A stretch of DNA of 64,000 nucleotides from assembly GCF_000687475.1 (NCBI RefSeq), contig NC_057316.1, forward strand, positions 6,200,001-6,264,000, written 5' to 3'. Under the pieces are notes generated by a model. The model ran no database searches. It saw only the letters and a list, made by a program, of their open reading frames with translations, and was not told the origin of the DNA. Shown here piece after piece: positions 7,631 through 57,691 of this stretch; positions within the stretch are counted from its first letter, which is position 1; each line of letters begins with the position of its first letter. Made by a program: the position numbers and the translations under genes. The DNA comes from Ustilaginoidea virens (Eukaryota; Ascomycota; Sordariomycetes; Hypocreales; Clavicipitaceae).

Positions 7631-10600
7631 ATGACACAGTCTAGGCCTTCCACTTATAAGGCCACTTTGGATTCCAACTCTAAAGCTGATCTTACTGTAC
7701 AACTACAGCTGGATATGGACGATATAAAGTCCCAGATGAACACCCTAATTACCTTTATACAAGGCCTAGTTAGTAGGCGAAATGGTAACGTTCCTACTAT
7801 TATAACTAGTAAGGAACTAGTAGAGGCTACTAGCCCTACTATCCCCGGTCCTACTATTACGACTATTAAGGACCCAGTAGAGGCTACTAGCCCTACTACC
7901 ACTAATGCCGCTTCTACTAATAATAGCAAGAATAATTCTACTAATAGGAAAAAGAAGCAGCAACAGAAGAAGAAACAGGACTCTAGCAGCAATCAGCAAG
8001 ATGTTGAGGCCTTTATTATAGGCAATTATAATACCCAGGATACTAATATATCCTATTCCTCTTCTTCTACCACTATATCCACTGATAACCAGCCCTTAGC
8101 TATAAGCTATAGTGCTAAATCAGGCGGTAGGACCCCTAAGGATGCCCTCCTTTACGATATAGGATCTACTTGTCATATTGTTAATGATAAGAAGCATTTC
8201 ACCACTTTTCACCATTTTGAAAAGAATGATAAGCCTGTAATTACTACTGGTGGTGGCCCTATTTCCCCTACTGGTTGGGGTACGGCACGATTTACTGTGC
8301 TACAGGGCATTAATCCTACGAAATGGGGTATTATAGAGCTCAAGAATGCACTATATATTCCTGCCTTGGATATTAACATCATTAGCGGTGTAAAGCACTA
8401 TGCCGCTAAAGGGGTACTAATTAAAAATCAGCTTTGGTCAGCAAGCCGTAAATGCATCGGCATTTTTAACTTTGATAAATACGGCTTTTTCCTTCCACAG
8501 AAAGGAATAGACACACCACTACTACATCAACCTTGTAGCCATTATACTATTACTAATAGTATATCAGTAGAGGTCCCCAGCCCTACTAACCCTGCTGATT
8601 ATAGTAATCCTGAGGATATTACTATTACCCCCGTTCCTACTACTGCGACTAGTAAGGAACCTGTAGAGGCTACTAGCCCTACTACTAACCAGTCCGCTAC
8701 CATAACTAGCGATGTTCCTACTACTGCAACTAGTAAGGAACCTATAGAGGCTACTAGCCCTACCACCCAACCTTCTGCTGTTACGACTAGCGAAGACCCT
8801 GTAGAGGCTACTAGCCCTACTACCCAACCTTCCGCTATTACGACTAGCGAAAATCCTGTAGTGGCTACTAGCCCTACTTCTACCCTTATAGCAGCTGATA
8901 CAGAATATCAGAAGCTATTACAATTAGCCGGCATTTGGCATGTACGGCTAGGGCATATAGGTATTCAGCTACTTAAAAAGACCTGTGCTAATACTTACCT
9001 GGTCTACCTTCTAAAGAAGAACATTGTTATTAAAACAACCTTTATTACCTTTATTCACCAAAATGAAGGTATAGGCCCTATTTCTAGTGGTCTAGAAGGA
9101 GACTTTCATAGAGGGCAAAATATAGGTTCAGAGGGGGTATCTAGCAGTAAAGAACCTGCTATTTTACTGGATGACCTAGAAAGCATTCCTGACCCTACTA
9201 ACTCTACTAACCTTACTAGCATTACTAACACTAATGCTATACCGGATGACCTGGAAAACATACCGGACCCTACTAACCTCACTAACATTACCAATACTAA
9301 TGTTATACCGGATGACCTGGAAAGCATACCGGACCCTACTAATTTTACTAGCATTACTAATGCTGCCCCGGATGATATTACTAACACTAATGCCACCGTG
9401 GATTACCTTCCTAAGTCAGAAGGTACTATACTACAGTCCCCGGCTACTGCAAAGGATGACCTTATAAATATCCTTATTAGCCTTAATCCTACCGACCTTA
9501 CCGGCCCTACTGGTCCTGTTGGCCCTGCTGACCCTACCAGCCCTACTGACTTATTCCCTAACCAGGATTTATACCACCTGATATGGGATTCCTGCTATGC
9601 AGCTAAGCGTAAGCTAGCTAAAAAGGCCCCTGGTGGGACGCCTAATAGCTGGAAGGATGTGCTACGAAGCCCTGAAAAAGACCTCTGGATAAAGGCTTTA
9701 TTTAAGGAATTTGAGCAGCTATTGGATACTAAAGTCTTCCAATTTATTCCTAAGTCTAGCGTTCCTATTGATAGGAAAATTATACGCAATAGGCCTGTTT
9801 TTCGGGTTAAAAAGGATGCTAATAATCAGCCTATAAAATATAAGGCTAGATTAGTTGTCAAGGGCTTTATGCAAGTCGAAGGAAAGGACTTCCAGCATAC
9901 CTATGCTTCTACCTCTATCCCACCCACCTGGAGGGTTATACTGGCTTTAGCTGCTAGTAATAACTGGGAAATAGAGCAAATTGATTTTATAGGCGCCTTC
10001 CTAAATAGCGAACTTTCTGAGACTATTTATATGGATATCCCTGATGGATTTCTTGAATTTCCGGAAAGTCTACTAACTGATAGCAAGCTTTGGTCTAATA
10101 TACAGCGCCAACGGTTACTAACTTTGCTTAAAGAAGCTGGCTTTGACCCTTCTATAAAGCAAGCTATTTTATTGAAGAAGGCCCTATACGGGCTAAAACA
10201 AGCACCCCGCGAATGGCAACACCGGCTAAAAGACCTGATTTCTAGTGAAGGTTTTTTACCTTTGGCTTCTGATGCTGCCGTCTTTTATAATAAGCAAACC
10301 AGCACCTTTATCGTCACTTATGTTGACGATTGCCTATTAGTTGGTCCAAATATAACTTATATTAACCAGCTAAAAAGGAAATTTCATAAGGTCTATGCTA
10401 TAGAAGACCGCGGTCCGGCTTCCTTCTTCTTAGGCGTACAAATTATATGGAATAGGAAGGAAGGTTTATTGTGGCTACACCAAGCCCAATTTATAGCAGA
10501 GGTCTTAGCTAAATTCGGCTTACAGGATACTAAACCTCAGCTAATTCCACTTCAACCAGGGATTCTAAATGAATCTAGTGGAAAAGATCTTAGCCCTACC

Positions 10601-11053
10601 GATCAGAGCCTTTATCAGAGCCTTACTGGCACTATAATGTGGCTTATGATGATGACTAGGCCCGACCTAGCATTTCCTACCCAATACTTCTCCCGGTTTA
10701 TGTCCAAGGCAACTAATGTGCATCTAAATGCTGCAAAAGGCAGCTTTAGCTACCTTAAAGGCACTGAGAACCTAGCTATTTGCTTTAGTACTACTAAAAG
10801 CAACCAACAGCCTATTATAACCGCTTATTCTGATAGCGACTTTGCTGGCTGTAAAGAAACCTCTAAATCTACTGGAGGCTTCTTGACTACTATTAATAGT
10901 AGTCCTATTAGCTGGCGTTCTAAGCGAGCCTCTTTAGTAGTATTATCTACTTTAGAAGCTGAATCTGATGCCTTACTTGAGACTATTCGTGAGCCACTGC
11001 CGGGCCCTAAATTTACTAGGTTCCGCGAGTTACTAGGTCTTATGGCCTGCTAA
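7631..11053 (+). CDS. Copia Gag-Pol polyprotein, internally deleted but open (1140 aa)
   Basis: Retrotransposon polyprotein. Order: Gag N-terminus (about residues 1-57); 40-odd residues of P-V-E-A-T-S-P-T repeats where the Gag core should be; basic KKKQQQKKK stretch; retropepsin region with active site reading DIGSTCHI (residue about 176) instead of DTGS; repeat-rich linker (residues about 335-420); WHVRLGHIG start of the integrase zinc module, cut after CANT; second linker with D-D-L-E-S-I-P-D-P-T repeats; reverse transcriptase with KALYGLKQAPREW and YVDDCLLVG (YVDD at about 897-900); RNase H with AYSDSDFAGCKE and STLEAESDALLE, then a jump to the final GPKFTRFRELLG. The integrase CxxC and DDE core and the last RNase H segment are absent compared with Copia-2. 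It has no in-frame stops, unlike its relatives. Could encode protein, but cannot be autonomous. The protease T-to-I change probably impairs processing. Confidence 0.9.
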   Translation: MTQSRPSTYKATLDSNSKADLTVQLQLDMDDIKSQMNTLITFIQGLVSRRNGNVPTIITSKELVEATSPTIPGPTITTIKDPVEATSPTTTNAASTNNSKNNSTNRKKKQQQKKKQDSSSNQQDVEAFIIGNYNTQDTNISYSSSSTTISTDNQPLAISYSAKSGGRTPKDALLYDIGSTCHIVNDKKHFTTFHHFEKNDKPVITTGGGPISPTGWGTARFTVLQGINPTKWGIIELKNALYIPALDINIISGVKHYAAKGVLIKNQLWSASRKCIGIFNFDKYGFFLPQKGIDTPLLHQPCSHYTITNSISVEVPSPTNPADYSNPEDITITPVPTTATSKEPVEATSPTTNQSATITSDVPTTATSKEPIEATSPTTQPSAVTTSEDPVEATSPTTQPSAITTSENPVVATSPTSTLIAADTEYQKLLQLAGIWHVRLGHIGIQLLKKTCANTYLVYLLKKNIVIKTTFITFIHQNEGIGPISSGLEGDFHRGQNIGSEGVSSSKEPAILLDDLESIPDPTNSTNLTSITNTNAIPDDLENIPDPTNLTNITNTNVIPDDLESIPDPTNFTSITNAAPDDITNTNATVDYLPKSEGTILQSPATAKDDLINILISLNPTDLTGPTGPVGPADPTSPTDLFPNQDLYHLIWDSCYAAKRKLAKKAPGGTPNSWKDVLRSPEKDLWIKALFKEFEQLLDTKVFQFIPKSSVPIDRKIIRNRPVFRVKKDANNQPIKYKARLVVKGFMQVEGKDFQHTYASTSIPPTWRVILALAASNNWEIEQIDFIGAFLNSELSETIYMDIPDGFLEFPESLLTDSKLWSNIQRQRLLTLLKEAGFDPSIKQAILLKKALYGLKQAPREWQHRLKDLISSEGFLPLASDAAVFYNKQTSTFIVTYVDDCLLVGPNITYINQLKRKFHKVYAIEDRGPASFFLGVQIIWNRKEGLLWLHQAQFIAEVLAKFGLQDTKPQLIPLQPGILNESSGKDLSPTDQSLYQSLTGTIMWLMMMTRPDLAFPTQYFSRFMSKATNVHLNAAKGSFSYLKGTENLAICFSTTKSNQQPIITAYSDSDFAGCKETSKSTGGFLTTINSSPISWRSKRASLVVLSTLEAESDALLETIREPLPGPKFTRFRELLGLMAC

Positions 11054-11161
11054 CTTATACTAACTCACTTTTACTAAGGTTTTTCTTATGTTTTTCCTTA
11101 GCACTTTTATTGCATTTTCTTTCCCTATCCTTTACACGATTAGCTTGCTATTACAGTAGCT

Positions 11162-11173
11162 AATCAGAGGGGG
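11162..11173 (+). other. Copia-1 polypurine tract
   Basis: AATCAGAGGGGG immediately before the 3' LTR; second-strand priming site. The same tract precedes the LTR of every Copia copy here, including the diverged Copia-B. Confidence 0.85.
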
Positions 11174-11901
11174 TGTTAAAATCCTATAGTAGCCTATTAG
11201 GCTGCTGGCCTAATGCTCTGCTGGCTTACTGACCTTCTGTCCCTTATACCGCTTCTTTGACTTATGGTAGTCTTACCTTAGACCTTTGCCTTTTACCTTA
11301 GGATTTTCAGTGGATTATTTACTGTATATCAAGTAAGGTAGGCCTTAAGGTAGGCCTTGTTAAAAAGGTGTGGCATTGCTAAATTAGCGTGGTGGGCCTT
11401 CTAGTGTGGTGGCTAGTCCACTAGTGTGGTGGGTAGTCACTAGCGTGGTGGTTAGTCACTAGCGTGGTGGCTAATTACTAGTGCGGTGGTTAGGGTGGTT
11501 GGAAAGGCTGGATATAGTGGGGCTGCTGACGTATTATATACGTGGCATAGCGAGCATTACGGGGAGCTTTCTTACTGGCTACCTTGGATGCCTGGGCCCA
11601 CCCCTCCTTCGTGTATATATAGGATAGCTTTTCTCCTTCTTTCTAGATAGTAGAAGGGTAGCACAATCGAGTCTGTTAATGCACTATATGCCTCTTAACT
11701 TTTTACCTTCCCTGCGTTTTCTGGTTATCTTATATTTGCCTTGCCTTTACACTTGCCCTGCTTTATAGCACTTGTATAGTCTTAGGACTTGGTGAAAAAT
11801 CTAGTATTATACTAAGATTAGTTCACAGGTCGCAGACAGTCTTGTGCCATCTAGCTAGCTAGTAAGGCTCTGCTTTTATAGTGACCTTGAGAATTGCAAT
11901 A
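11174..11901 (+). repeat. Copia-1 3' LTR
   Basis: 728 bp, nearly identical to 6190-6916; differences are single bases and 1-2 bp indels. Followed by the target duplication AGGTC. Confidence 0.92.
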
Positions 11902-11906
11902 AGGTC

Positions 11907-12733: not shown

Positions 12734-13462
12734 TATTGCAATTTTAAAGGTCACTATAAAGCAAAGCCTTACTAGCTAGCTAAATGGCATAAGACTGTCT
12801 GCGACCTGTGACTTAATCTTAGTATAAATACTAGATTCTTTACTAAGTCCTAAGACTATACAAGTGCTATAAAGCGAGGCAAGTGTAAAGGCAAGGCAAA
12901 TATAAGATAACCAGAATAACGCAGGGAAGGTGGAAGTTAAGAGGCATGTAGTGCATTAACAGGTTCGATTGTGCTGCCCTTCTACTATCTAGAAAGAAGG
13001 GGGAAAGCTATCCTATATATACACGAAGGAGGGGTGGGCCCAGGCATCCAGGATAGCCAGTAAGAGAGCTCCCCGTAATGCTCGTCACCAACCCTGCTAT
13101 ATCCGACTAACCCCGCTATATCCGGCTACCCTAACCACTATGCTAGTGACTAACCACTACGCTAGTAACTAGCCACCACGCTAGTGACTAACCACCACAC
13201 TAGTAGGCTAGCCACCACGCTAGTAGGCCGCCACCACGCTAGTAGGCCACCACGCTAATTTAACAATGCCACACCTTTTTTTAACAAGGCCTACCTTACT
13301 TGATATACAGTAATAATCCACTGAAAATCCTTAAGGTAAAAGGCAAAGGCCTAAGGTTGGTAAGACTACCATAAGTCTAAGAGACGGTATAAGGGCCAGA
13401 AGGTTAGTAAGCCAGTAGGGCATTAGGCCAGCAGCCTAGTAGGCTACTATAGGATTTTAACA
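12734..13462 (-). repeat. Copia-4 3' LTR
   Basis: 729 bp in reverse orientation (plus strand begins TATTGCAATTTT and ends GGATTTTAACA), followed by the polypurine tract complement CCCCTTCTGATTAG. Confidence 0.88.
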
Positions 13463-14240
13463 CCCCTTCTGATTAGCTACTGTAGTAGCAAGCTAATCGT
13501 GTAAAGAATAGGGAAAGAAAATGCAGTAAAAGTGCTAAGGAAAAACATAGGAAAAACCTTAGTAAGTTAGTACAAGTTAGTATAAGTTAGCAGGCCCTAA
13601 GACCTAGTAACTCGCGGAACCTAGTAAATTTAGGGCCTGGTAGTGGCTTCGTAAGACCGTCAGCAGGCATATTATTAGTAGGTAAGTAGGTAATTTTAAC
13701 CAAGCCCAGCTGGGCTTGCTCCCTAATATACCGGAATTTTAATAGCGTATGCTTAGTGCGAGCATGCTGATTAGGGTCGTTAGAATTTAAAATAGAGCCC
13801 TGGTTATTGCAGTATAGCGGTATAGGACGTAAGATATCAATTTCCAGCTCCTTACAAAGGTTAGAAAGCCACTATACCTCACGGATAGTCTCAAGTAATG
13901 CATTAGATTCAGCTTCTAAAGTAGATAGCACTACTAAAGAGGCTCGCTTAGAACGCCAGCTAATAGGACCACTATTAATAGTAGTAAGAAAACCTCCAGT
14001 TGATTTAGAAGTTTCTTTACAGCCAGCAAAATCGCTATCAGAATAAGCGGTTATAATAGGCTGTTGGTTGCTTTTAGTAGTACTAAAACAAATAGCTAGG
14101 TTCTTAGTGCCTTTAAGGTAACTAAAGCTGCCCTTTGCAGCATTTATATGCACATTAGTTGCTTTCGACATAAACCGAGATAGGTATTGGGTAGGAAATG
14201 CTAGGTCGGGCCTAGTTATCATCATAAGCCATATTATAGT
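13463..14240 (-). pseudogene. Copia-4 pol 3' end: RNase H
   Basis: Minus-strand RNase H including an open 117-codon piece (14225-13872) with MITRPDLAFPTQYLSRF and AYSDSDFAGCKE. The pol stop corresponds to 13589-13587. Unlike Copia-1, this copy keeps the last RNase H segment, here with stops. Interrupted at 14240 by Copia-2; continues at 21495. Confidence 0.82.
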
Positions 14241-14966
14241 TGTTAAAATCCTATAGTAGCCTACTAGGCTGCTGGCCTTATGCCCTACTGGCCTACTAAC
14301 CTTCTGGCCCTTATACCGCCTCTTGGACTTATGGTAGTATTACCTTAGGCCTTTGCCTTTTACCTTAAGGATTTTCAGTGGATTATTTACTGTATATCAA
14401 GTAAGGTAGGCCTTGTTGAAAAGGTGTGGCATTGCTAAATTAGCGTGGTTGCCTACTAGCGTGGTGGCGGCCTACTAGCGTGGTGTGGCATTGCTAAATT
14501 AGCGTGGTGGCCTACTAGCGTGGTGGCTAGTTACTAGTACGGTAACTAATTACTAGTGCGGTGGTTAGGGTGGTTGGAAAGGTCGGATATAGCGGGGTTG
14601 CTGACGTATCATAGCGAGCATTACGGGGAGCCCTCTTACTGGCTTCCCTGGATGCCTGGGCCCACCCCTCCTTCGTATATATATAGGATAGCTTTCCCCC
14701 TTCTTTCTAGATAGTAGAAGGGTAGCACAATCGAGTCTGTTAATGCACTATATGCCTCTTAACTTCTTACCTTCTCTGCGTTTTCTGGTTATCTTATATT
14801 TGCCTTGCCTTTATACTTGCCCTGCTTTATAGCATTTGTATAGTCTTAGGACTTGGTGAAAAATCTAGTATTTATATTAAGATTAGTTTATAGGTCGCAG
14901 ACAGTCTTATGCTATCTAGCTAGCTAGTAAGGCTCTGCTTTTATAGTGACCTTGAGAATTGCAATA
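14241..14966 (+). repeat. Copia-2 5' LTR
   Basis: 726 bp, TGTTAAAATCC to GCAATA, with a shuffled minisatellite (GTGGCATTGCTAAATTAGCGTGG duplicated around CTACTAGCGTGG units). Confidence 0.92.
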
Positions 14967-15710
14967 GGTTATGAGCCTGGGTTTTTACTTCTTTGTTTTT
15001 ACCCTACCTTTTTGTGTTCACCCCTTGGTCTCTTTTGCTTATTAGTACTACTAATATAGCTATCTTTTGGTATCTTCGGCTTACCCTTATTAACTTCGCT
15101 TACCTATTATCACCTTTGGCTTACCCTCTATTACCTACGGCATTACCCTGCGGCAATCAACGGCATACCTAACGGCAATTTACGGCGTAACCTCACGGCA
15201 CTTTTAGCGTAACCTTACGTTATTTTTCGGCGTAACCTACGGTACCTACGGATTTTATAGTGTGATATCTACCACATTATACCACTGTATAACACTTTTA
15301 CACCTAGTGCACGACACCCACTGCACTGTACGGCACCTGTTATACTCTTCTACTTATAGCACTTTTGGTACGGCACTTACGGCACCTCTTATATTACGGC
15401 ACCTATAGCACCCACGGCACCTACGGCACCTACGGCACTTACGGCACCTTTATATTACGGCACTAAATAAGCACCTTAAACACCAACGCTATAATACGGA
15501 CTTGCACAACGCCTACGGCATCTGTGCTTTTATACTGAGACCTACCGCTATATTCTGCGGTTACCTTTTATAGTAGGCTACTAGCCACTATATTTACTGA
15601 CTTTCCAGCTTATTACTCGACTATTTTGCTAGCTATTCAGCTAGTTATTCCTCTGTTTTACAACTATCGGCACCATTTTTCAACGGATTTTTAAACCCTT
15701 TTTGCCCACT

Positions 15711-18700
15711 ATGGCAGAGTCAGGATCCTATAAGGTCCCTGAATCCGATACTGAAGTTGATACTAATGCACAGCTACAGCTAGATATGGACGATATGAAA
15801 TCCCAGATGAATATACTAACTGACCTTATATAGGGCCTAGTTAGTAGGCAAAATAACGATTCCTAGGCTACCTAGGCTACCTAGGCTACTAATAAGAAGT
15901 CTACTAAAGCCACTGAAGCTGGACCTTCCACTAAGACTACCACTAAAGATGATGATAGTGAAGCTGACGTTATGGAAATCGACCAACCTTCTACGCCTAT
16001 AAAATATAAGGGTAAAGAGCCTATTTATATAATGCCACCAATAACTATTACCAACCAAATTAGTGATGGGGCTATTAAGGAATTAGCTAAGACTGCCAAC
16101 CGCTTTAAAGAGTCTCAGAAGCTAAAAAGCCCCTATAATTTCGACCAGTGGAAGCAGGCCCTTATAATACAACTTAGGGCCTTTAAAATAGCAAATTTTG
16201 TCAACGACCCCTCTATAGCAAGGCATTTTGATGAGTCTGAGCAGGCACTTTTACTACTAATGCTAAAGAATAGCTGTGGTGAAGAAGCTGTAGAGGCTAT
16301 AGATTGGTGTAATGACCCAGAGGAAGCTTACCTTTTGCTAGTGGCCTAGTACTGCCATTCACTAGAAGTACAGCGGGCATACTTATACCCTACCTTTCAC
16401 ACCCTTATACTTACCGGTTATAAAGGCACTTTAGAGGCTTTTAATAGCGAATTTAATAGCTATATTTCTCGCCTCAGAATCCTAGGTTCTAAGATCGACT
16501 CTTTCGATTAAGTAAACCAGTATCTTTGGGCTGTAGAGGGGGTATTTACCCGCTGGACGGAACGCTAACGCTCTATGATTAGGGCTTATAGCGCCTAAGG
16601 TGTTATTAATAGCAGCAAATTTAACCTCTAGTATTTTATGGTTGACCTACTAGAAGAATAGCGTTCTAAAGGGTCTTCTAAGGTGGCTGCTAATAACCCT
16701 AAGCAGCTTAAGGCTTCCAAGGACCCTAAGAAAGGGTCTACTAATGCCGCTTCTACTAATAATAGTAAGAATAATTCTACTAATAATAGGAAAAAGAAGC
16801 AGCAACAGAAGAAGAAATAGGACTCTAACAGCAATCAGCAAGATGTTGAGGCCTTTATTATAGGCAACTATAATACCCAGGATACTAATATATCTTATTC
16901 TTCTTCTACTATATCTACTGATAACCAGCCCTTAGCTATAAGCTATAGTGCTAAATCAGGCGGTAGGACTCCTAAGGATGCCCTCCTTTACGATACAGGC
17001 TCTACTTGTCATATTGTTAATGATAAGAAGCATTTCACCACTTTTCACCATTTTGAGAAGGATGATAAGCCTGTAATTACTACTGGTGGTGGCCCTATTT
17101 CCCCTACTGGTTGGGGTACAGCACGATTTACTGTGCTACAGGGCATTAATCCTACAAAATGGGGTATTATAGAGCTCAAGAATGCACTATATATTCCTGC
17201 CTTGGATATTAACATTATTAGCGGTGTAAAGCATTATGCTGCTAAAGGGGTACTAATTAAAAATCAGCTTTGGTCAGCAAGCCGTAAATGCATCGGCATT
17301 TTTAACTTTGATAAATACGGCTTTTTCCTTCCATAGAAAGGAATAGACACACCACTACTGCATTAACCTTGCAGCCACTATACTAATAGTATAGTAGTAG
17401 AGGTCCCCAGCCCTACTAACCCTGCTGATTATAGTGATCCTGAGGAAACCACTATTACCCCCATTCCTACTACTGCGACTAGTAAGGAACCTGTAGAGGC
17501 TACTAGCCCTACTACCCAACCTTCCGCTATTACGACTAGCGAAGAGCCCGCTATTACGACTAGCGAAAATCCCGTAGTGGCTACTAGCCCTACTCCTGCC
17601 CCTGTAGCTGCTGATACAGAATATCAGAAGCTATTACAGTTAGCCGGCATTTGGTATGTACGGCTAGGGCATATAGGTATTCAGCTACTTAAAAAGACCT
17701 GTGCTAATACCCCTGGTCTTCCTAACCTTAATAAGGTTAAAGATGCTGATTTTCGCTGCCTAGCTTGTATTTAAGCTAAGAAGGTTAGAAAACCTTCTAA
17801 GGATGTGATACCTAATCCAGCTAAATGCCTGGATATTATAGAAGGTGATACTTTTGCTATATCACCTATGCCATACAACAAACGACCTGTTGCCCTTATA
17901 TTAGTGGACAGAAAATCCCGATTCCGTTGGCTTTACTTACTGCCTAATAGGGAAGGCACTGTTGTTTTTAAAGCATTACAGAGCTTTATATAGAGCCTAC
18001 AGGTCAGATATGGTAAAACGCCTGTTGAATTCCACTATGATGGTGGAAATGAAATCAATAAAATGCTTAGTGATTGGCTTGTCGAACAGGGCATAACTTT
18101 TAATACATCTTGCCTTTATATTCACGAATAAAACGGCCTAGCTGAGCGGTCCATTAGGGTTATAGCTGATAGACTACGTGCTACTATGGCCTGGTCAAGG
18201 CTACCATCTAACCTCTGGTCCGCTGTAATTACTGGCGTTGTTATGCTAGTAAATATAATAGCAGTTACTAATAGACCTTCTAGCCCCTATTAGGAGCTAT
18301 TAAAGGATTATGACCAGATAATACCGGAGCACTACCCTGATCTTATTAACCTTAGGGCTATTGGAGCAGCTATTGAAGTGCTTATACCACACGAAAAGCG
18401 TGTAAAGAGCCGTAAATTAGTGCCCTGTACCGAGCCTGGTAGGCTCCTTGCCACTCTAGGTAATAATACCTACTTGGTCTACCTTTTAAAGAAGAAGGTT
18501 GTTACTAAAACAACCTTTATTACCTTTATTCACCAAAATGAAGGTATAGGCCCTATTTCTAGTGGTCTAGAAGGAGACTTTTATAGAGGGCAAAATATAG
18601 GTTTAGAGGGGGTATCTAGCAGAGAACCTGCTATTTTACTGGATGACCTAGAAAGTATTCCTGACCCTACTAACTCTACTAACCCTACTAATATTACTAA

Positions 18701-20630
18701 TAATAATGTTATACTGGATGACCTTAAAAGCGTCCCTGGTATTATTAATATTAATACCACCCCTATAATTTAGTCCCCGGCTACTGTAAAGGATGACCTT
18801 ATAGATATCCTTACCAGCCTTACTCCTGCCGACCTTGCTGGCCCTACTGGCCCTGCTGGCCCTGCTATACCTGCGGGCCCTACTAACCCTACTAGCCCTA
18901 CCGACTTATTCCCTGATCAGGATTTATACCACCTGATATGGGATTCCTGCTATAAAGCGAAGCGTAAGCTTGCTAAAAATGCTGATGGCACGCCAAATAG
19001 CTGGAAGGATGTGCTATAAAGCCCTGAAAAAGACCTTTGGATAAAGGCCTTATTTAAGGAATTTGAGCAGTTATTGGATACTAAAGTCTTCCAATTTATT
19101 CCTAAGTCTAGCGTTCCTATTGATAGGAAAATTATACGCAATAGGCCTGTTTTTTGGGTTAAAAAGGATGCTAATAATCAGCCTATAAAATATAAGGCTA
19201 GATTAGTTGTTAAGGGTTTTATGCAAGTCGAAGGAAAGGACTTTCAGTATACCTATGCTTCTACCTCTATCCCACCTACCTGGAGAGTTATACTGGCTTT
19301 GGCTGCTAGTAATAACTGGGAAATAGAGCAAATTGACTTTATAGGCGCTTTTCTAAATAGCGAACTTTCTGAGACTATTTATATGGATATTCCTGATGGA
19401 TTCCTTGAATTTATGGAAAGTTTACTAACTGATAGTAAGCTTTGGTCTAATATACAGCGCCAATGGCTACTAACTTTGCTTAAAGAAGCTGGCTTTGACC
19501 CTTCTATAAAGCCAGCTATTTTATTAAAGAAGGCCCTATACGGACTAAAACAAGCACCCCGCGAATGGCAATACCGGCTAAAAGACCTGATTTCTAGTGA
19601 AGGCTTCTTACCTTTAGCCTCTGATGCTGCCGTCTTTTATAATAAGCAAACCAGCACCTTTATCGTTACTTATGTTGACGATTGCTTATTAGTTGGTCCA
19701 AATATAATTTATATTAACCAGCTAAAAAGGAAATTTCATAAGGTCTATGCTATAGAAGACCGCGGTCTGGCTTCCTTCTTCCTAGGTGTACAGATTATAC
19801 GAAATAGGAAGGAAGGTCTATTGTGGCTACACCAAGCCCAATTTATAGTAGAGGTTCTAGCTAAATTCGGCTTACAGGATACTAAACCTTAGCTTATTCC
19901 ACTTCAACCAGGGATTCTAAATGAATTTAGTGGAAAAGACCTTAGCCCTACTGATTAGAGCCTTTATCAGAGCCTTACTGGCACTATAATGTGGCTTATG
20001 ATGATGACTAGGCCCGACCTAGCATTTCCTACCTAATACCTTTCTTGGTTTATGTCGAAAGCAACTAATGCGCATCTAAATGCTGCAAAAGGCAGCTTTA
20101 GTTACCTTAAAGGCACTGAGAATCTAGCTATTTGCTTTACTAAAAGCAACTAATAGCCTATTATAGCCGCTTACTCTGATAGCGACTTTGCTGGCTGTAA
20201 AGAAACCTCTAAATCTACTGGAGGCTTCTTGACTACTATTAATAGTGGTCTTATTAGCTGGCGTTCCAAGCGAGCCTCTTTAGTAGTATTATCTACTTTA
20301 GAAGCTGAATCTGATGCATTACTTGAGACTATCCGTGAGGTATAGTGGCTTTCTAACCTTTGTAAGGAGCTGGAAATCGATATTTTACGCCCTATACCGT
20401 TATACTGCGATAATCAGGGCTCTATTTTGAATTCTAATGACCCTAACCAGCATGCTCGCACTAAGCATACACTATTAAAATTCCGGTATATTAGGGAGTA
20501 AGCACAGCTCGGCTTGGTTAAAATTACCTACTTACCTACTAATAGTATGCCTGCTGACGGTCTTACAAAGCCACTAGCGGGCCCTAAATTTACTAGGTTC
20601 CGCGAGTTATTAGGTCTTAGGGCCTGCTAA
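15711..20630 (+). pseudogene. Copia-2 Gag-Pol polyprotein pseudogene
   Basis: Full-length but stop-ridden polyprotein of about 1640 codons from ATG 15711 to TAA 20628-20630. Order: Gag with the central FDQWKQALIIQLRAF helix region (from about 16140) and LMLKNSCGEEAVEA; basic linker; protease DTGSTCHI near 16995; integrase zinc module with CLACI near 17755; integrase core with LILVDRKSRFRWLYLL near 17900 and a GNE-type segment near 18045; reverse transcriptase with KALYGLKQAPREW and YVDDCLLVG (about 19675); RNase H with DSDFAGCKE, YCDNQGS (about 20405) and the ADGLTKPL end. Nearly all breaks are TAG or TAA where Copia-1 or the minus-strand copies have CAG or CAA, the expected product of RIP. 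The open pieces at 15972-16349 and 19074-19892 are parts of this gene. Confidence 0.9.
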
Positions 20631-23933: not shown

Positions 23934-24501
23934 TGTCAAGGATTCGGGCTACGCCCGTATCATGCTAAGGACAAGCTTGCGCGCAGCATAGTGCCAAGGG
24001 GATATAGGTGTCAATTGTACCAAGTGTGGTAACTTGGTACAATACGTACTCTTTTGTCTGGTCTAACGGTCAGACAGAAGATTAGGTTTTTACCTGGCGA
24101 TGTGCGCAGACACCCGCTTAGGGCCTAATTGGGCCACTTCGTTACATTTGTACCAAGTTACCCAAGGTCACAGGTTCGAGTCCCGTATGTGGTGCGTGCA
24201 GCGGGCTCCTTACCTGGGCTTACAGAGGATGGGACTGGCCTCTGGGGGGTGCGTGGTATCAGATGGCCGGCTGCGGAGAGGGGAGCTATGTCAAGGATTC
24301 GGGCTACGCCCGTATCATGCTAAGGACAAGCTTGCGCGCAGCATAGTGCCAAGGGGATATAGGTGTCAATTGTACCAAGTGTGGTAACTTGGTACAATAC
24401 GTACTCTTTTGTCTGGTCTAACGGTCAGACAGAAGATTAGGTTTTTACCTGGCGATGTGCGCAGACACCCGCTTAGGGCCTAATTGGGCCACTTCGTTAC
24501 A
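23934..24501 (+). mobile_element. TRIM-1: miniature LTR retrotransposon
   Basis: 568 bp: two 213-bp LTRs (23934-24146, 24289-24501) identical by eye, around only 142 bp. Duplication TCTGT (23929-23933, 24502-24506) in the integrase gene of Copia-4. LTRs run TGTCAAGGATTC to TTCGTTACA. A purine-rich tract (GGAGAGGGGAGC) precedes the right LTR, which sets the orientation as plus. No coding capacity. Each LTR can form a 12-bp hairpin (24014-24025 with 24032-24043). Its first 24 bases match the Gypsy LTR at 21 positions. The intact, identical LTRs suggest recent movement. Confidence 0.9.
24147..24288 (+). other. TRIM-1 internal domain with tRNA-like 3' half
   Basis: 142 bp. Includes a sequence resembling the T-arm and acceptor 3' strand of a tRNA (GGTTCGAGTCC fits a pol III B box; flanking ACAGG/CCCGT nearly pair). 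TRIM-2 has the same segment with GGTTCGAATCC. There is no matching 5' half, so it is not a tRNA gene. It also does not sit where a primer site should be in either orientation. Confidence 0.6.
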
Positions 24502-26746
24502 TCTGTAATGCTTTAAAAACAATAGTGCCTTCCCTATTAGGCAGCAAGTAAAGCCAGCGGAATCGGGATTTTCTGTCCACTAATATAAGGGCAATAGGTC
24601 GTTTGTTATATGGCATAGGTGATATAGCAAAAGTATCACCTTCTATAATATCCAGGCATTTAGCTGGATTAGGTATCGCATCCTTAGAAGGTCTTCTAAC
24701 CTTCTTAGCCTGGATATAGGCTAGGCAGCGAAAATCAGCATCTTTAACCTTATTAAGGTTAGGCAGACTAGGGGTATTAGCATAGGTCTTTTTAAGTAGC
24801 TGAATACCTATATGCCCTAGCCGTACATGCTAAATGCCGGCTAATTGTAATAGCTTCTGATATTCTGCATCAGCTGCTATAGGGGCAGGAGTAGGGCTAA
24901 TAGCCACTACAGGGTCTTCGCTAGTCATAATAGCGGGAGAGTTGGTAGTAGGGCTAGTAGCCTCTACAGGTTCCTTACTAGTTGCAGTAGTAGGAACGGG
25001 GGTAATAGTGGTATCCTTAGGATCACTATAATCAGCAGGGTTAGTAGGACTGGGGACCTCTACTGTTATACTATTAGTAACAGTGTAATGGCTGCAAGGT
25101 TAATGCAGCAGTGGTATGTCTATTCCTTTCTGTAGAAGGAAAAAGCCGTATTTATTAAAGTTAAAAATGCCGATGCATTTACGGCTTGCTGACTAAAGCT
25201 GATTTTTAATTAGTACCCCTTTAGCGGCATAGTGCTTTACACCGCTAATGATGTTAATATCCAAGGTAGGAATATATAGTGCATTCTTGAGCTCTATAAT
25301 ACCCCATTTGGTGGGATTAACGCCCTATAGCATAGTGAATCGTGCTATGCCCTAACCAGTAGGGGAAATAGGGCTACTACTAGTAGTAATAATAGGCTTA
25401 TTATCCTTCTTAAAGTGGTGAAAAGTGGTGAAATGTTTCTTATTATTAACAATATGACAAGTGGAGCCTGTATCGTAAAGGAGGGCATCCTTAGGGGTCC
25501 TACCGCCTGATTTAGCACTATAGCTTATATTAGTGGATATACTGGAAGAAGAATAAGATATATTAGTATCCTGGGTATTATAGTTGCCTATAATAAAGGC
25601 CTCAACGTCTTGCTGATTGCTGCTAGAGTCCTGTTTCTTCTTCTGTTGCTGCTTCTTTTTCCTATTATTAGTAGAATTATTCTTGCTATTATTAGTAGAA
25701 GCGGTATTAGTAGACCCTTTATTCTTAGAGTCTTTGGAAGCCTTAAGCTGCTTAGGGTTATTATTAGCAGCTACTTTATTAGACCCTTTAGAACGCTATT
25801 CTTCTAGTAGGTCAACCATAAAATACTGGAGGTTAAATTTGCTGCTGTTAATAATACCCTGGGTGCTATAAGCCCTAATCATAGAGCGTTGGCGTTCCGT
25901 CCAGCGGGTAAATACCCCCTCTATAGCCCAAAGATACTGGTTAATTTGGTCGAAAGAGTCGATCTTAGAACCTAGGATTCTGAGGCGAGAAATATAGCTG
26001 TTAAATTCGCTATTAAAAGCCTCTAAAGTGCCCTTATAACCGGTAAATGTAAGGGTGTGAAAGGTAGGGTATAAGTGTGCCCGTTGTACTTCTGGTGAGT
26101 GGCAATACTGGGCTACTAGTAAAAAGTAGGCTTCCTCTGGGTCGTTATACCAGTCTATAGCCTCTGCAGCTTCTTCACCACAGCTATTCTTTAGCATTAG
26201 TAGTAGAAGTGCCTGCTTAGACTTATTAAAGTGCCTTGCTATAGAAGGGTCGTTGATAAAATTAGCTATTTTAAAGGCCCGAAGTTGTATAGTAAGGGCC
26301 TGCTTCTACTGGTCGAAATTATAGGGGCTTTTTAGCTTTTGGAACTCCTTAAAGCGGTTGGCAGTCTTAGCTAATTCCTTAATAGCCCCATTACTAATTT
26401 GGTTGGTGATAGTTGTTGGTGGCGTTGTATAAATAGGCTCTTTACCCTTATATTTTATAGGGGTAGAAGGTTGGTTAATTTCTATAACGTTAGCCTTATT
26501 ATCATTATCCTTAGTGGTAGTCGTCTTAGTGGAAGGTCTAGCTTCAGTGGCTTTAGTAGGCTTCTTATTAGTAGCCTGGTTAGCCTAGGTGTCGTTATTT
26601 TGCCTACTAATTAGGCCCTGTATACGGTCAGTTAGTATATTTATCTGGGACTTTATATCGTCTATATCCAGCTGTAGTTGTGCATTAGTATCAGCTTCAG
26701 TATTGGATTCAGGGACCTTATAAGTAGAAGACCCTGATTCTGCCAT

Positions 26747-27505
26747 AGTGGGCAAAAAAGGTTTAAAAATCCGTTGAAAAATGGTGCCGATAGTTGTAAT
26801 AATAGAGGAATAATTAGCAGAGAAATAACTAGCTAAATAGCTAGCAAAATAGTTGAATAACTAGTCGGATTGCTAGTATATATAGTGGCTAGTAGCCTAC
26901 TATAAAAATAGCCGCAGATTATAGCGGCCGGTCTCAGTATAAAAGCATAGATGCCGTAGGCGTTGTGCAAGTCTGTATTATAGCGTTGATATTCAAGGTG
27001 CTTATATGGTGCCGTAATATAAAGGTGCCGTAAGTGCCGTAGGTGCCGTAGGTGCCGTGGGTGCTATAGGTGCCGTAATATAAAAGGTGCTGTAAATGCC
27101 GTACCAAAAGTGCTATAAGTGGGAGAGTATAACAGGTGCCGTATGATGCAGTGGGTGTCGTGCACTAGGTGCAAAGGTGTTATATAGTGGTATAGTGTGA
27201 TAGATATCACACTATAAAGTCCGTAGGTGCCGTAGGTTACTCTAAAAATAACGTAAGGTTACGCTAAAAGTGCCGTGAGGTTATGCCGTAAGTTGCCGTT
27301 AGGTACGCCGTTGATTGCCGTAGGGTAATACTGTAGGTAATAGAGGGTAAGCCAAAGGTAATAATAGGTAAGCCAAAGTTAATAAAGGTAAGCCGAAGAT
27401 ACCAAAGGATAGCTATATTAGTAGTACTAATAAGCAAAAGAGACCAAGGGGTGAATACAAAAAGGTAGGGTAAAAACAAAGAAGTAAAAACCCGGGCTCA
27501 TAACC
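26747..27505 (-). other. Copia-3/4 leader with repeats, palindrome and primer site
   Basis: Minus-strand leader between the gag ATG and the LTR at 27506. Contains GGTGCCGTA-type repeats (about 26998-27115), a perfect 12-bp inverted repeat with 2-nt spacer (27191-27216) and the primer site CCCGGGCTCATAACC complement at 27491-27505, unmutated. Confidence 0.8.
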
Positions 27506-28269
27506 TATTGCAATTTTTAAGGTTACTATAAAAGCAGAGCCTTACTAGCTAGCTAGATGGCACGAGACTTTTTGCGACCTGTGAACTAATCTTAGTATAA
27601 TATTAGATTTTTCACTAAGTCCTAAGACTATATAAGTGCTATAAAGCAGGGCAAGTGTAAAGGCAAGGCAAATATAAGATAACCAGAAAACGCAGGGAAG
27701 GTAAGAAGTTAAGAGGCATATAGTGCATTAATAGACTCGATTGTGCTACCCTTCTACTATCTAGAAAGAAGGGGGAAAGCTATCCTATATATACACGAAG
27801 GAGGGGTGGGCCTAGGCATCTAGGGAAGCCAGTAAGAGGGCTCCCCGTAATGCTCGCTATGATACGTCAGCAACCCCGCTATATCCGACTTTTCCAACCA
27901 CCCTAACCACCGCACTAGTAGTTAGTCACCGCACTAGTAACTAGCCACCACGCTAGTGACTAACCACCACACTAGTAGACTAGCCACCACGCTAGTAGGC
28001 CACCACGCTAATTTAGCAATGCCACACCACGCTAGTAGGCCGCCACCACGCTAGTAGGCAACCACGCTAATTTAGCAATGCCACACCTTTTCAATAAGGC
28101 CTACTTTACTTGATATACAGTAAATAATCCACTGAAAATCCTTAAGGTAAAAGGCAAAGGCCTAAGGTAATACTACCATAAGTCCAAGAGGCGGTATAAG
28201 GGCCAGAAGGTTAGTAGGCCAGTAGGGCATAAGGCCAGCAGCCTAGTAGGCTACTATAGGATTTTAACA
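27506..28269 (-). repeat. Copia-3 5' LTR (extra LTR within Copia-4)
   Basis: 764 bp. To its left lie a primer site, leader and gag start; to its right the gag of another copy begins mid-gene at 28270. No duplication pairs with it, so the partner LTR has been lost, most simply by recombination between Copia-3 and Copia-4. Confidence 0.82.
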
Positions 28270-30949: not shown

Positions 30950-30954
30950 TAAGC

Positions 30955-31451: not shown

Positions 31452-32226
31452 TATTGCAATTCTCAAGGTCACTATAAAAGCAGAGCCTTACTAGCTAGCT
31501 AGATAGCACGAGACTGTCTGCGACCTATAAACTAATCTTAGTATAATACTAGATTTTTCATTAAGTCCTAAGACTATATAAGTGCTATAAAGCAGAGCAA
31601 GTATAAAGGCAAGGCAAATATAAGATAACTAGAAAACGCAGGGAAGGTAAGAAGTTAAGAGGCATATAGTGCATTAATAGACTCGATTGTGCTGCCCTTC
31701 TACTATCTAGAAAGAAGGGGGAAAGCTATTCTATATATACACGAAGGAGGGGTGGGCCTAGGCATCCAAGGTAGCCAGTAAGAAAGCTCCCCGTAATACT
31801 CACTTGCCACGTATATAATACGTCAGCAGCCCCGCTATATCCGGCCTTTCCAACCACCCTAACCACCGCACTAGTAATTAGCCATTACGCTAGTAGACTA
31901 ACCACCACGCTAGTATACTAGCCACCACACTAGTGGACTAGCCACCACGCTAGTGACTAACTACCATACTAGTGGACTAGCCACCACACTAGTATGCCGC
32001 CACCACGCTAATAGGCTACCACGCTAATTTAGCAATGCCACACCTTTTTAATAAGGCCTAACTTACTTGATATACAGTAAATAATCCACTGAAAATCCTT
32101 AAGGTAAAAGGCAAAGGCCTAAGGTAAGACTACCATAAGTCCAAGAGGCGGTATAAAGGCCAGAAGGTTAGTAGGCTAGTAGGGCATAAGGCCAGCAGCC
32201 TAGTAGGCTACTATAGGATTTTAATA
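31452..32226 (-). repeat. Copia-5 left LTR (3' side)
   Basis: 775 bp, ending GGATTTTAATA (terminal CA changed to TA). Followed by the polypurine tract complement. Confidence 0.83.
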
Positions 32227-32347
32227 CCCCCTCTGATTAGCTACTATAGTAGCAAGCTAATCGTGTTAAGGATAGGGAAAGAAAATGCAGTAAAAAGTGC
32301 TAAGGAAAAATATAGGAAAAACCTTAGTAAAAATATGTTAATATAAG

Positions 32348-35300
32348 TTAGCAGGCCCTAAGGCCTAGTAACTCGCGGAACCTAGTAAATTTAGGGCCCG
32401 GCAGTGGCTTAGTAAGACCGTCAGCAGGCATACTATTAGTAGGTAAGTAGGTTATTTTAACTAAGCCCAGCTGGGCTTGCTCTCTAATATACCGGAATTT
32501 TAATAGAGTATGCTTAGTGCGAGTATGCTGATTAGGGTCGTTAGAATTTGAAATGGAGCCCTAATTATCGCAGTATAGCGGTATAGGGCGCAAAATGTCA
32601 ATTTCCAGCTCCTTACAAAGGTTAGAAAGCCACTATACCTTACGAATAGTCTCAAGTAATGCATTAGATTCAGCTTCTAAAGTAGATAGCACTACTAAAG
32701 AGGCTCGCTTAGAACGCCAGCTAATAGGACCACTATTAATAGTAGTAAGGAAGCCTCTAGTAGATTTAGAGGTTTCTTTACAGCCAGCAAAATCGCTATT
32801 AGAATAAGCGGTTATAATAGGCTGTTGGTTGCTTTTAGTAGTACTAAAGCAAATAGCTAGGTTCTCAGTGCCTTTAAGGTAGCTAAAGCTGCCTTTTGCA
32901 GCATTTAGATGCATATTAGTTGCCTTGGACATAAACCGAGAGAGGTATTGAGTAGGAAATGCTAGGTCGGGTCTAGTTATCATCATAAGCCACATTATAG
33001 TGCTAGTAAGGCTCTGATAAAGGCTCTGATTAGTAGGGGTAAGGTCTTTTCCACTAGATTCATTTAGAATCCCTGGTTGAAGTGGAATAAGCTGAGGTTT
33101 AGTATCCTGTTGTTAAAATCCTATAGTAGCCTACTAGGCTGCTGGCCTTATGCCCTACTGGCCTACTAACCTTCTGGCCCTTATACCGCCTCTTGGACTT
33201 ATGATAGTATTTCCTTAGGCCTTTGCCTATTACCTTAAGGATTTTCAGTGGATTATTTACTGTATATCAAGTAAGGTAGGCCTTGTTGAAAAGGTGTGGC
33301 ATTGCTAAATTAGCGTGGTTGCCTACTAGCGTGGTGGCGGCCTACTAGCGTGGTGTGGCATTGCTAAATTAGCGTGGTGGCCTACTAGCGTGGTGGCTAG
33401 TCCACTAGTGTGGTGGTTAGTCACTAGCGTGGTGGCTAGTTACTAGTGCGGTGACTAATTACTAGTGCGGTGGTTAGGGTGGTTGGAAAGGTCGGATATA
33501 GCGGGGTTGCTGACGTAGTATAGCGAGCATTACGGGGAGCCCTCTTACTGGCTTCCCTGGATGCCTGGGCCCACCCCTCCTTCGTGTATATATAGGATAG
33601 CTTTCCCCCTTCTTTCTAGATAGTAGAAGGGCAGCACAATCGAGTCTGTTAATGCACTATATGCCTCTTAACTTCTTACCTTCCCTGCGTTTTCTGGTTA
33701 TCTTATATTTGCCTTGCCTTTACACTTGCCCTGCTTTATAGCACTTGTATAGTCTTAGGACTTGGTGAAAAATCTAGTATTATACTAAGATTAGTTCACA
33801 GGTCGCAGACAGTCTCGTGCCATCTAGCTAGCTAGTAAGGCTCTGCTTTTATAGTGACCTTGAGAATTGCAATACCTGTAAGCCGAATTTAGCTAAGACC
33901 TCTGCTATAAATTGGGCTTGGTGTAGCCATAATAAACCTTCCTTCCTATTTCGTATAATTTATATGCCTAGGAAATAGAAAGCCGGACCGCGGTCTTTTA
34001 TAGCATAGACCTTATGAAATTTCCTTTTTAGCTGGTTAATATAAGTTATATTTGGACCAACTAATAGGCAATCGTCAATATAAGTGACGATAAAGGTGCT
34101 GGTTTGCTTATTATAAAAGACGGCAGCATCAGAAGCTAAAGGTAAAAAACCTTCACTAGAAATCAGGTCTTTTAGCCGGTATTGCCATTCGCGGGGTGCT
34201 TGTTTTAGCCCGTATAGGGCCTTCTTTAGTAAGATAGCTTACTTTACAGAAGGGTCAAAGCCAGCTTCTTTAAGCAAAGTTAGTAGCCGTTAGCGCTGTA
34301 TATTAGACCAGAGCTTACTGTCAGTTAATAGACTTTCCGTAAATGCAAGGAATCCATCAGGGATATCCATATAAATAGTTTCGGAAAGCTCGCTATTTAG
34401 AAAGGCGCCTATAAAGTCGATCTGCTCTATTTCCTAGTTATTACTAGCAGCTAAAGCCAGTATAACCCTCCAGGTAGGTGGGATAGAGGTAGAAGCATAA
34501 GTATGCTGAAAATCCTTTCCTTCGACTTGCATAAAACCCTTGACCACTAATCTAGCCTTATATTTTATAGGCTGATTATTAGCATCCTTTTTAACCCGAA
34601 AAATAGGCCTATTGCGTATAATTTTCCTATCAATAGGAACGCTAGACTTAGGAATAAATTGGAAGACTTTAGTATCTAAAAGCTGCTCGAATTCCTTAAA
34701 TAGTGCCTTTATCCAAAGGTCTTTTTCTTTTTTAGGGCATCGTAGCACATCCTTCCAGCTATTAGGCATACCATCAGAGGCCTTTTTAGCTAGCTTACGC
34801 TTAGCTGCATAGCAGGAATCCCATATCAGGTTGTATAAATCCTAATTAGGGAATAAGTCGGTAGGGCTAGTAGGGTCGGTAGGGCCAGCAGGACCAGCAG
34901 GGCCAGCAGGGCCAGTAGGGTCAGCAATATCGGTAGGATTAAGGCTAGTAAGGATATCTATAAGGTCATCCTTTGCAGTAGCCGAGGACTGTATTATAGG
35001 ACGGTTATCCAAGGTAGTATTAGTAACGCTAATAAAATTAGTAGGGTCCGGTATGCTTTCCAGGTCATCCGGTATAACATTAGTGTCAGTAATATTAGTA
35101 AGGTTAGTAGAGTTAGTGGGGTCAGAAATGCTTTCTAGGTCATCCAGTAAAATAGCAGGTTCTCTGCTAGATACCCCCTCTGAACCTATATTTTGCCCTC
35201 TATAAAAGTCTCCTTCTGGGCCACTAGAAATAGGGCCTATACCTTCATTTTGGTGGATAAAGGTAATAAAGGTTGTTTTAGTAATATCCTTCTTCTTTAA

Positions 35301-36554
35301 AGGGTAAACCAGGTAGGTATTAGCACAGGTCTTTTTAAGTAGCTGAATACCTATATGCCCTAGCCGTATATGCCAAATGCCGGCTAATTGTAATAGCTTC
35401 TGATATTCTGTATTAGCTGCTATAAGGGCAGGAGTAGGGCTAGTAGCTACTACAGGATTTTCGCTAATCGTAATAGCGGGCTCTTTACTAGTCGTAATAG
35501 CAGGAGGTTGGGTGGTAGGGCTAGTAGCCTCTATAGGTTCCTTACTAGTTGCAATAGTAGGAACGGGGGTAATAGTGGTATCCTTAGGATCACTATAATC
35601 AGCAGGGTTAGTAGGGCTGGGGACCTCTACTGTTATACTATTAGTAACAGTATAATGGCTACAAGGTTGATGTAGTAGTGGTGTGTCTATTCCTTTCTGT
35701 GGAAGGAAAAAGCCGTATTTATCAAAGTTAAAAATGCCGATGCATTTACGGCTTGCTGACCAAAGCTGATTTTTAATTAGTACCCCTTTAGCGGCATAGT
35801 GATTTACACCGCTAATAATGTTAATATCCAAGGTAGGAATATATAGTGCATTCTTGAGCTCTATAATACCCCATTTGGTGGGATTAACGCCCTATAGCAC
35901 AGTAAATCGTGCTGTGCCCCAACCAGTAGGGGAAATAGGGCCACCACCAGTAGTAATTACAGGCTTATCATCCTTCTCAAAATGGTGAAAAGTGGTGAAA
36001 TATTTCTTATCATTAACAATATGATAAGTAGAGCCTGTATTGTAAAAGATGGCATCCTTAGGGGTCCTACCGCCTGATTTAGCACTATAGCTTATATCAG
36101 TGGATATAGTGGAAGAAGAATAAGATATGTTAGTATCCTGGGTATTATAGTTGCCTATAATAAAGGCCTCAATATCTTGCTGTTTGCTGCTATTGTTGGA
36201 GTCTTGTTTCTTCTTCTGTTGCTGTTTCTTTTTCCTATTATTAGTAGAATTATTCTTGCTATTATTAGTAGAAGCGGCGTTAGTAGTAGTAGGGCTAGTA
36301 GCCTCTACAGGGTCCTTGCTGTTTATATTAGTAGGACCGGAGATAGTAGGGCTAGAAGCCTCTACCAGTTCCTTACTAATTATAATAGTAGAAACGTTAC
36401 TATTTTGCCTACTAACTAAGCCTTGTATAAGGATAGTTAAGGTGTTCATCTGGGACTTTATATAGTCCATATCTAGCTGTAGTCGTACAGTAAGATCAGC
36501 TTTAGAGTCGGAATCCAAAGTGGCCTTATAAGTAGAAGGCCTAGACTGTGCCAT
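32348..36554 (-). pseudogene. Copia-5 Gag-Pol, internally deleted
   Basis: Minus strand from ATG 36554-36552 to a stop at about 32350-32348. The Gag N-terminus is followed by P-V-E-A-T-S-P-T units in place of the Gag core, as in Copia-1. The protease reads NTGSTYHI: the catalytic aspartate is asparagine. The integrase is cut after CANT and rejoined at TYLVYPLKKK, the same junction as Copia-1. Open pieces are 36554-35892, 35831-34842, 34769-34434 and 32995-32633, separated by a few TAA/TAG stops and by the solo LTR in RT/RNase H. RNase H keeps its C-terminal segment, so the RNase H deletion of Copia-1 came later. Confidence 0.87.
33111..33874 (+). repeat. Solo Copia LTR inside Copia-5
   Basis: 764-bp plus-strand LTR flanked by CCTGT (33106-33110, 33875-33879). 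A single LTR with an intact duplication means the internal region was removed by recombination between its LTRs. Confidence 0.92.
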
Positions 36555-57686: not shown

Positions 57687-57691
57687 ACTAT

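What the first reader, a model, noticed from the sequence alone, without database searches (positions are those of the whole stretch)
7631..36554. Non-autonomous Copia subfamily with shared Gag and integrase deletions
Copia-1 (+) and Copia-5 (-) lack the same Gag core and the same integrase core with the same junctions (integrase: CANT joined to TYLVY), and both remain in frame. Shared junctions in two separate insertions mean the deleted form was copied and inserted, so it must use Gag and integrase from full-length relatives such as Copia-2. Barley BARE-2 parasitising BARE-1 is a known parallel. Keeping a 1140-codon frame open amid RIP suggests recent activity or selection for the remaining RT/protease.
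Basis: partly seen in the sequence, partly recalled or inferred. Interest (0 to 1): 0.8.

Follow-up and report, generated by a model that had tools for sequence, protein, structure and literature searches.

The report
Swarm of parasitic fungal Copia retrotransposons
In the rice false-smut fungus, many copies of a Copia jumping gene have lost the parts that build its particle and insert it, yet kept spreading, apparently on proteins borrowed from intact relatives, while some keep their shortened reading frame open.

Summary
The window lies in Ustilaginoidea virens UV8b. Copia-1 and Copia-5 share one integrase deletion (759 bp, in frame) and one Gag replacement. Genome-wide the integrase junction has 72 places, the undeleted site 220, the Gag junction 120 (controls 0). 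Five deleted copies examined at both ends sit in five different sites with five different perfect 5-bp target duplications; another has 0/739 LTR differences. So deleted forms were copied and integrated after losing integrase, which must come in trans; six of 150 scored relatives have open frames of 1444-1688 codons. The deleted forms are a mosaic swarm: further shared in-frame deletions remove protease, RT fingers, RT palm or RNase H in various combinations. Corrections: Copia-5 is not open and lacks a target duplication; Copia-1 also lacks 231 bp of RNase H. Mouse IAP 1-delta-1 is a closer parallel than BARE-2. Why the frame stays open is unsettled.

The parts
6190..11901 (+). Copia-1, non-autonomous element, 5712 bp (LTRs 6190-6916 and 11174-11901; TSD AGGTC)
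   Evidence: LTRs 6 differences in 726 aligned sites; 5-bp TSD
6917..6931 (+). primer binding site GGTTATGAGCCCGGG, read here as complementary to the anticodon half of initiator tRNA-Met (copia type; assignment recalled, no call)
   Evidence: sequence after the 5' LTR; kept in 13 of 15 deleted copies with two LTRs, one of the 13 with one change in GGTTATGAGCC
7616..11053 (+). Copia-1 open frame, 1145 codons: Gag N-terminal stub, protease, pre-integrase half, RT, truncated RNase H
   Evidence: Pfam Pol_BBD and RVT_2
7769..7901 (+). Gag junction of Copia-1: Gag core replaced by EATSPTT repeat
   Evidence: junction at 120 genome places
8978..9012 (+). integrase junction of Copia-1 (759 bp lost at TAATACC microhomology)
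   Evidence: 72 genome places
10992..10993 (+). RNase H junction of Copia-1 (231 bp lost, in frame)
   Evidence: 12 genome places
14241..21489 (+). Copia-2, full-length structure with Gag and integrase, TSD ATAGT, coding region broken by stops
21490..28269 (-). larger part of an older full-length relative interrupted by Copia-2 (rest read as 12734-14240)
   Evidence: aligns to Copia-2 with Gag and integrase present
12734..14240 (-). 3' part and 3' LTR read as belonging to the same older element
31452..38062 (-). Copia-5, non-autonomous element with the same Gag and integrase junctions; broken; no TSD
35299..35333 (-). integrase junction of Copia-5
36286..36416 (-). Gag junction of Copia-5
33111..33874 (+). 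solo LTR (TSD CCTGT) inserted in the RT of Copia-5

Best explanation
Copia-1 and Copia-5 belong to a non-autonomous, trans-mobilised swarm of a Copia family in U. virens. Deletions removed Gag and integrase and, in sub-lineages, protease, RT fingers, RT palm or RNase H. LTRs, leader, primer site and polypurine tract stayed. RNAs of these elements are packaged in particles of full-length relatives, copied by their RT and inserted by their integrase. Template switching between co-packaged RNAs then shuffles the deletions into new combinations. Shown: the shared junctions, dispersed independent insertions with TSDs after the loss of integrase, near-zero LTR divergence in some, mosaicism, and open relatives. 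Inferred: packaging, trans supply, and template switching as the shuffling mechanism. The shortened frame is probably translated; the most interesting candidate reason is a cis-acting fusion protein as in mouse IAP 1-delta-1.
For: Junctions at 72 (integrase), 120 (Gag), 52 (RT fingers), 13 (RT palm) and 12 (RNase H) places, reversed controls 0. L012, L014 and L015 are identical over 3.1 kb, L021 and L022 likewise; all five have different flanks and different perfect TSDs AATAT, TTACT, CTACT, GTAGG, ATAGT. Perfect TSDs in 9 of the 15 further deleted copies with two LTRs (20 fetched, 5 incomplete), LTR differences 0/739 to 21/719 in those 9. Six of 150 scored Gag-bearing relatives have open frames of 1444-1688 codons; the one whose coding stretch I fetched, L062, has DTGS, YVDD and an rve match, which is absent from the Pfam tables of three open deleted copies and of Copia-1. 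Mosaics: L012 vs L021 1/1475 differences left of the junction and 58/1092 right (p 4e-21); Copia-1 vs L002 44/578 and 18/1590 (p 2e-13). RT-fingers deletion: of 52 places 40 on the integrase-deleted background, 10 on the undeleted, 2 unassigned.
Against: No RNA, protein or particle data. DNA-level gene conversion could make part of the mosaicism. 6 of the 15 complete copies lack a matching TSD, as does Copia-5. Most of the deleted copies read carry stops. L010 and L046, which keep Gag without integrase, could be survivors of an earlier step and not recombinants.
Confidence: 0.88

Rival explanations
1. Segmental duplication or DNA-level gene conversion spread the junctions; no retrotransposition of deleted forms.
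For: Nested, rearranged repeats in the window; Copia-5 without TSD; 6 of 15 other copies without a matching TSD; the 1218-bp RT-RNase H deletion is at only two places on one contig.
Against: Different flanks and perfect 5-bp TSDs in 5 of 5 copies examined at both ends and perfect TSDs in 9 of 15 others; 72 integrase-deletion places on six contigs.
Confidence: 0.04
2. The same deletion arose many times at the same microhomology.
For: 7-nt microhomology at the integrase junction; two variants of the 711-bp junction one base apart.
Against: 53 of 62 integrase-deleted places in the range covered by the list also carry the separate Gag junction upstream; identical copies.
Confidence: 0.03
3. The deletions are spliced introns fixed by reverse transcription.
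For: The 231-bp RNase H deletion can be placed as GT...AG (1 of the 5 deletions checked), so for that one splicing is possible. BARE1 RNA is spliced at the start of its protease region (PMC3735527, passages).
Against: Integrase, RT fingers, RT palm and RT-RNase H deletions offer no GT/GC...AG in any equivalent placement or within 2 nt of one. Gag and protease replacements were not tested for this.
Confidence: 0.03
4. On the frame question: it stays open only because the copies are young and keep acquiring tracts from full-length relatives that are under selection; the protein of the deleted forms does nothing.
For: Mosaicism; near-zero LTR divergence in some; most repeat-array indels come in codon multiples anyway.
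Against: The domain-scale deletions counted are all in frame (4 of 4 away from the Gag/protease repeat replacements, 1/81; 6 of 6 with those, 0.0014), and so, once paired, are inherited indels outside repeats.
Confidence: 0.4
5. On the frame question: an open frame to the normal stop protects the RNA from nonsense-mediated decay, without need for the protein.
For: Frames of L012 and L040 end at the same relative stop as Copia-1 although different domains are missing.
Against: Not tested; no RNA data.
Confidence: 0.25

Closest known systems
Mouse IAP 1-delta-1 (PMC6466679, passages read)
   Same: Shared deletion in gag-pol leaving an ORF for a fused protein; non-autonomous, needs gag and pol in trans; [quoted passage not shown]
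   Different: Copia, not retroviral; here several different in-frame deletions in combination; cis function of the fusion not tested.
Barley BARE2 on BARE1 (PMC3735527, passages)
   Same: Copia subfamily unable to make Gag, packaged in the helper's particles.
   Different: [quoted passage not shown] here internal in-frame deletions of Gag, IN and often PR, RT or RH; packaging not tested here.
Wheat RLC_Angela non-autonomous sub-families (PMC9744471, passages)
   Same: Co-evolving autonomous and non-autonomous groups of one family; the paper invokes LTR transfer by gene conversion or template switching.
   Different: There the coding sequence is degenerate with frame-shifts and stops; here the youngest copies keep it open.
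Cattle ERVK[2-1-LTR] C and D types (PMC10924933, passages)
   Same: Defective elements dominate new insertions; recombination between competent and defective RNAs inferred.
   Different: D type lacks functional genes; one defective class rather than several combinations.

Membership tests
Ty1/copia LTR retrotransposon (Pseudoviridae) | domain order PR-IN-RT in the full-length relative, RVT_2 | tested here: met
   Pol_BBD, gag_pre-integrs, rve, SH3, RVT_2 in that order in L062 (rve, gag_pre-integrs and SH3 are under the curated cut-off)
Ty1/copia LTR retrotransposon (Pseudoviridae) | LTRs with 5-bp target duplication, primer site, polypurine tract | tested here: met
   primer assignment to tRNA-iMet recalled
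non-autonomous, trans-mobilised LTR element | lacks enzymes yet present as independent insertions made after the loss | tested here: met
non-autonomous, trans-mobilised LTR element | RNA packaged in helper particles | not testable with these tools
   no RNA or particle data
BARE2 type | Gag start codon lost, other genes intact | tested here: not met
   the Gag start region is kept, Gag core and integrase are lost
IAP 1-delta-1 type | in-frame deletion with a fused open frame in recent insertions | tested here: met
   (L012, L040)
IAP 1-delta-1 type | fusion protein helps in cis | not testable with these tools
   needs a mobility assay
TRIM/LARD | no coding sequence (definition recalled) | tested here: not met
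   open frames of 975-1145 codons

The most novel reading that the evidence does not exclude
A recombining, modular population of defective retrotransposon genomes, comparable to defective interfering genomes of RNA viruses, that can lose Gag, protease, integrase, RT or RNase H in many combinations but must stay translatable. The surviving fusion (Gag stub to RNase H end) or its translation would act in cis to get the RNA into helper particles, and the swarm would act as a brake on its helper in a fungus that also shows RIP-type mutation.
Probability: 0.3. Interest if true: 0.75.

Novelty: new variant of a known kind. Interest (0 to 1): 0.55.

Why it matters
Trans-mobilised LTR elements are known, but here one compact sequenced genome holds dozens of deleted copies, some very young, with six kinds of shared in-frame domain deletion, full-length relatives with open frames, and mosaics. 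That makes two open questions testable: whether translation or a fused protein helps the RNA in cis, and whether parasitic copies displace their helper. Copies with a RIP-type change in the protease motif (DTGS to DIGS), shared by near-identical insertions, suggest that mutated copies were passed on by retrotransposition.

Tried and rejected
Selection on the remaining RT/protease: I compared 6 frames (5 open deleted copies and the full-length L062) in 15 pairs, with a null that keeps the substitution spectrum. The nonsynonymous/synonymous ratio was 0.26-0.73 of expectation; in 12 of 15 pairs 0 of 2000 shuffles were as low, in the other three the fractions were 0.0105, 0.019 and 0.0245. I do not count this as selection in the deleted lineages: the copies are mosaics with tracts from full-length relatives, and open copies were chosen.

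DIGS as a diagnostic protease-dead mark: rejected. ACA/ATA is polymorphic among the 100 listed of 153 places and the change is C before A, i.e. RIP-type.

Shared indels outside repeats: 31 scored, 27 in frame; the other four are two pairs in the same copies (16 and 629; -13 and 10) whose sums are multiples of 3. Inside the repeats four shared ones are out of frame as aligned, in copies where others offset them; not used. Six loci were left out of that count beforehand (L010, L034, L038, L039, L046, L047); private indels (46 of 101 in frame outside repeats, 18 of 30 inside) include misaligned ends and were not used. The RT-RNase H deletion (1218 bp) was left out of the in-frame count because both places are on one contig. 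The RT-fingers deletion is counted as away from the repeat replacements although its left end touches a variable repeat stretch.

Microhomology as the general cause of the deletions: only the integrase join is convincing (7 nt); the others checked have 0, 1, 1 and 2 nt.

Rfam (gathering) and tRNA searches of the window found nothing.

Full report
Setting. The window is C1:6200001-6264000 of a 37.16-Mb assembly. The 1237-3468 part of its POM152 gene (minus strand) is 100% identical to UV8b_01426 of Ustilaginoidea virens, the rice false-smut fungus. Most of 4.5-38 kb and 53-58 kb is a nest of one Copia family with LTRs of about 730-780 bp.

The observation. Copia-1 (6190-11901) has TSD AGGTC and LTRs differing at 6 of 726 aligned sites. 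Copia-2 (14241-21489, TSD ATAGT) has the full-length layout but many stops, and sits inside what I read as an older minus-strand full-length element (12734-14240 plus 21490-28269). Copia-5 (31452-38062, -) has no TSD and carries a solo LTR (33111-33874) in its RT. Against Copia-2, both Copia-1 and Copia-5 lose 759 bp of integrase, joined at TAATACC, and both have the Gag core replaced by about 100 nt of the EATSPTT repeat. Copia-1 also lacks 231 bp of RNase H. Only Copia-1 is open (1145 codons).

Genome-wide. RY-degenerate patterns (so that C-to-T and G-to-A changes do not hide copies) give 72 places with the integrase junction, 220 with the undeleted site, 120 with the Gag junction, 52 with an RT-fingers deletion, 13 with an RT-palm deletion, 12 with the RNase H deletion and 2 with an RT-RNase H deletion; every reversed control is 0. 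Mismatch limits were 3 or 2 (71-73), so diverged copies are missed.

Fetched copies. I held 50 loci around the integrase junction, which are 47 places, one of them Copia-1 itself (L001); with Copia-5 that is 48 of 72. Gag core in its proper place was seen only in L010 and L046. Among the 46 other than Copia-1: 23 lack the RT fingers (561 bp) and 6 the RT palm (711 bp). 10 give no protease match; in 7 of these the Gag stub is still upstream, so protease is deleted or replaced (net 327, 762, 729 or 366 bp, multiples of 3); L038, L039 and L047 are unalignable there. L048 and L049 also have the 231-bp RNase H deletion. L061, outside the 72, is the converse: Gag and protease gone, integrase kept but with stops, RT fingers gone. 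Of 100 listed Gag-junction places, 53 are followed by the integrase deletion, 12 by a listed undeleted site, 35 by neither (only 100 of 120 and 100 of 220 places are listed). Of 52 RT-fingers deletions 40 are on integrase-deleted, 10 on undeleted backgrounds, 2 unassigned; of 13 RT-palm deletions 11 are on integrase-deleted backgrounds, 2 unassigned.

Copied and inserted after the loss. L012, L014 and L015 are identical over 3100 bp, and L021 and L022 likewise. I fetched both ends of these five: all start and end at the LTR tips, with five different flanks and five perfect 5-bp TSDs. Of the 20 longer loci 15 have two LTRs; 9 of those have perfect TSDs, with LTR differences from 0/739 (L040) to 21/719 (L049). 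The other 6 have no matching TSD, with LTR differences from 28/747 to 69/717, the last (L035) misaligned at its end. Integrase must therefore have come from elsewhere for the copies with TSDs. Candidates exist: a Gag search scored 150 of 393 candidates, six of which lie in open frames of 1444-1688 codons; the coding stretch of one (L062) has the copia domains in order.

Recombination. L012 and L021 differ at 1 of 1475 sites left of the junction and 58 of 1092 right of it (Fisher 4e-21). L040 is close to both in its left part (25 of 1451, 24 of 1451) and departs in its right part (80 of 1169, 72 of 918). Copia-1 and L002 differ at 44 of 578 left and 18 of 1590 right (windows). L010 has a Gag part 93-98% like L062 followed by a part 95-100% like L012. 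Template switching in shared particles explains this best; gene conversion is not excluded.

The open frame. The domain-scale deletions counted (Gag, protease, integrase 759, RT fingers 561, RT palm 711, RNase H 231) all keep the frame: (1/3)^6 = 0.0014. Gag and protease were replaced by codon-multiple repeats, so the strict count is 4 of 4, about 0.012. Breakpoint homology is 7, 1, 0 and 2 nt for those four, and the RNase H deletion alone could be a GT...AG splice. L012 (1037 codons) and L040 (975 codons) are open to the same relative stop as Copia-1, although L012 lacks the RT fingers and L040 the RT palm. Most other copies read have stops. The substitution test favours constraint in all 15 pairs but is confounded. 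So frame retention is suggestive, its cause open: cis protein, decay avoidance, or inheritance from selected relatives.

RIP-type mutation. In 10 LTR pairs 65 of 67 differences are transitions; 41 of the 65 have C followed by A, against 769 of 3258 C sites in the background.

What is known. Mouse IAP 1-delta-1 combines a gag-pol fusion ORF, dependence in trans, dominance among new insertion mutations and a cis effect of the fusion (PMC6466679, passages); it is the nearest mechanism. BARE2, wheat Angela and cattle ERVK supply other parts (passages). A 2026 comparison of six U. virens strains gives Ty1/Copia only 0.04-0.06% of the genomes (PMC13233505, passages), so this family is probably filed elsewhere there. 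The listings of my paper searches show no paper on this family or on such a swarm in a fungus; the listings were capped and most subscription journals are not held. The best 120 of 440 protein relatives are Copia-type polyproteins, mostly of Phyllachora maydis, best 47% identity over 33% of the query.

One search was added; it showed the GT...AG fit of the RNase H deletion, so the splicing rival went from 0.02 to 0.03. Counts of protease-lacking loci, primer sites and open relatives were mended.

Noticed in passing
48867-63982: A second, more distant layer: 48867-51754 pairs with 63982-61100 at 68% and 52100-53418 with 60815-59500 at 72%, inverted. Separately, sequences 64-67% like the Gag and integrase cores lie downstream in L034 and L046.
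   Followed up: no
38500-39913 and 44459-45870: 1.4-kb direct repeat (85%) in the AT-richest part of the window (G+C about 0.28-0.34).
   Followed up: no
23932-24501 and 30172-30737: A 570-bp repeat (90%, inverted) lying as an insert in the older full-length element relative to Copia-2.
   Followed up: no
L049 flanks: The TSD of L049 is GAGCC within TATGAGCC, i.e. it may sit in another copy's primer site; perhaps a preferred target.
   Followed up: no
genome: A published repeat table for six U. virens strains gives Copia 0.04-0.06%, although one Copia family alone has 292 integrase-site places here.
   Followed up: partly
8576-8903 and related repeats: An EATSPTT-coding repeat array (57-nt steps) between protease and pre-integrase varies in copy number and fills the Gag and protease gaps.
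   Followed up: partly
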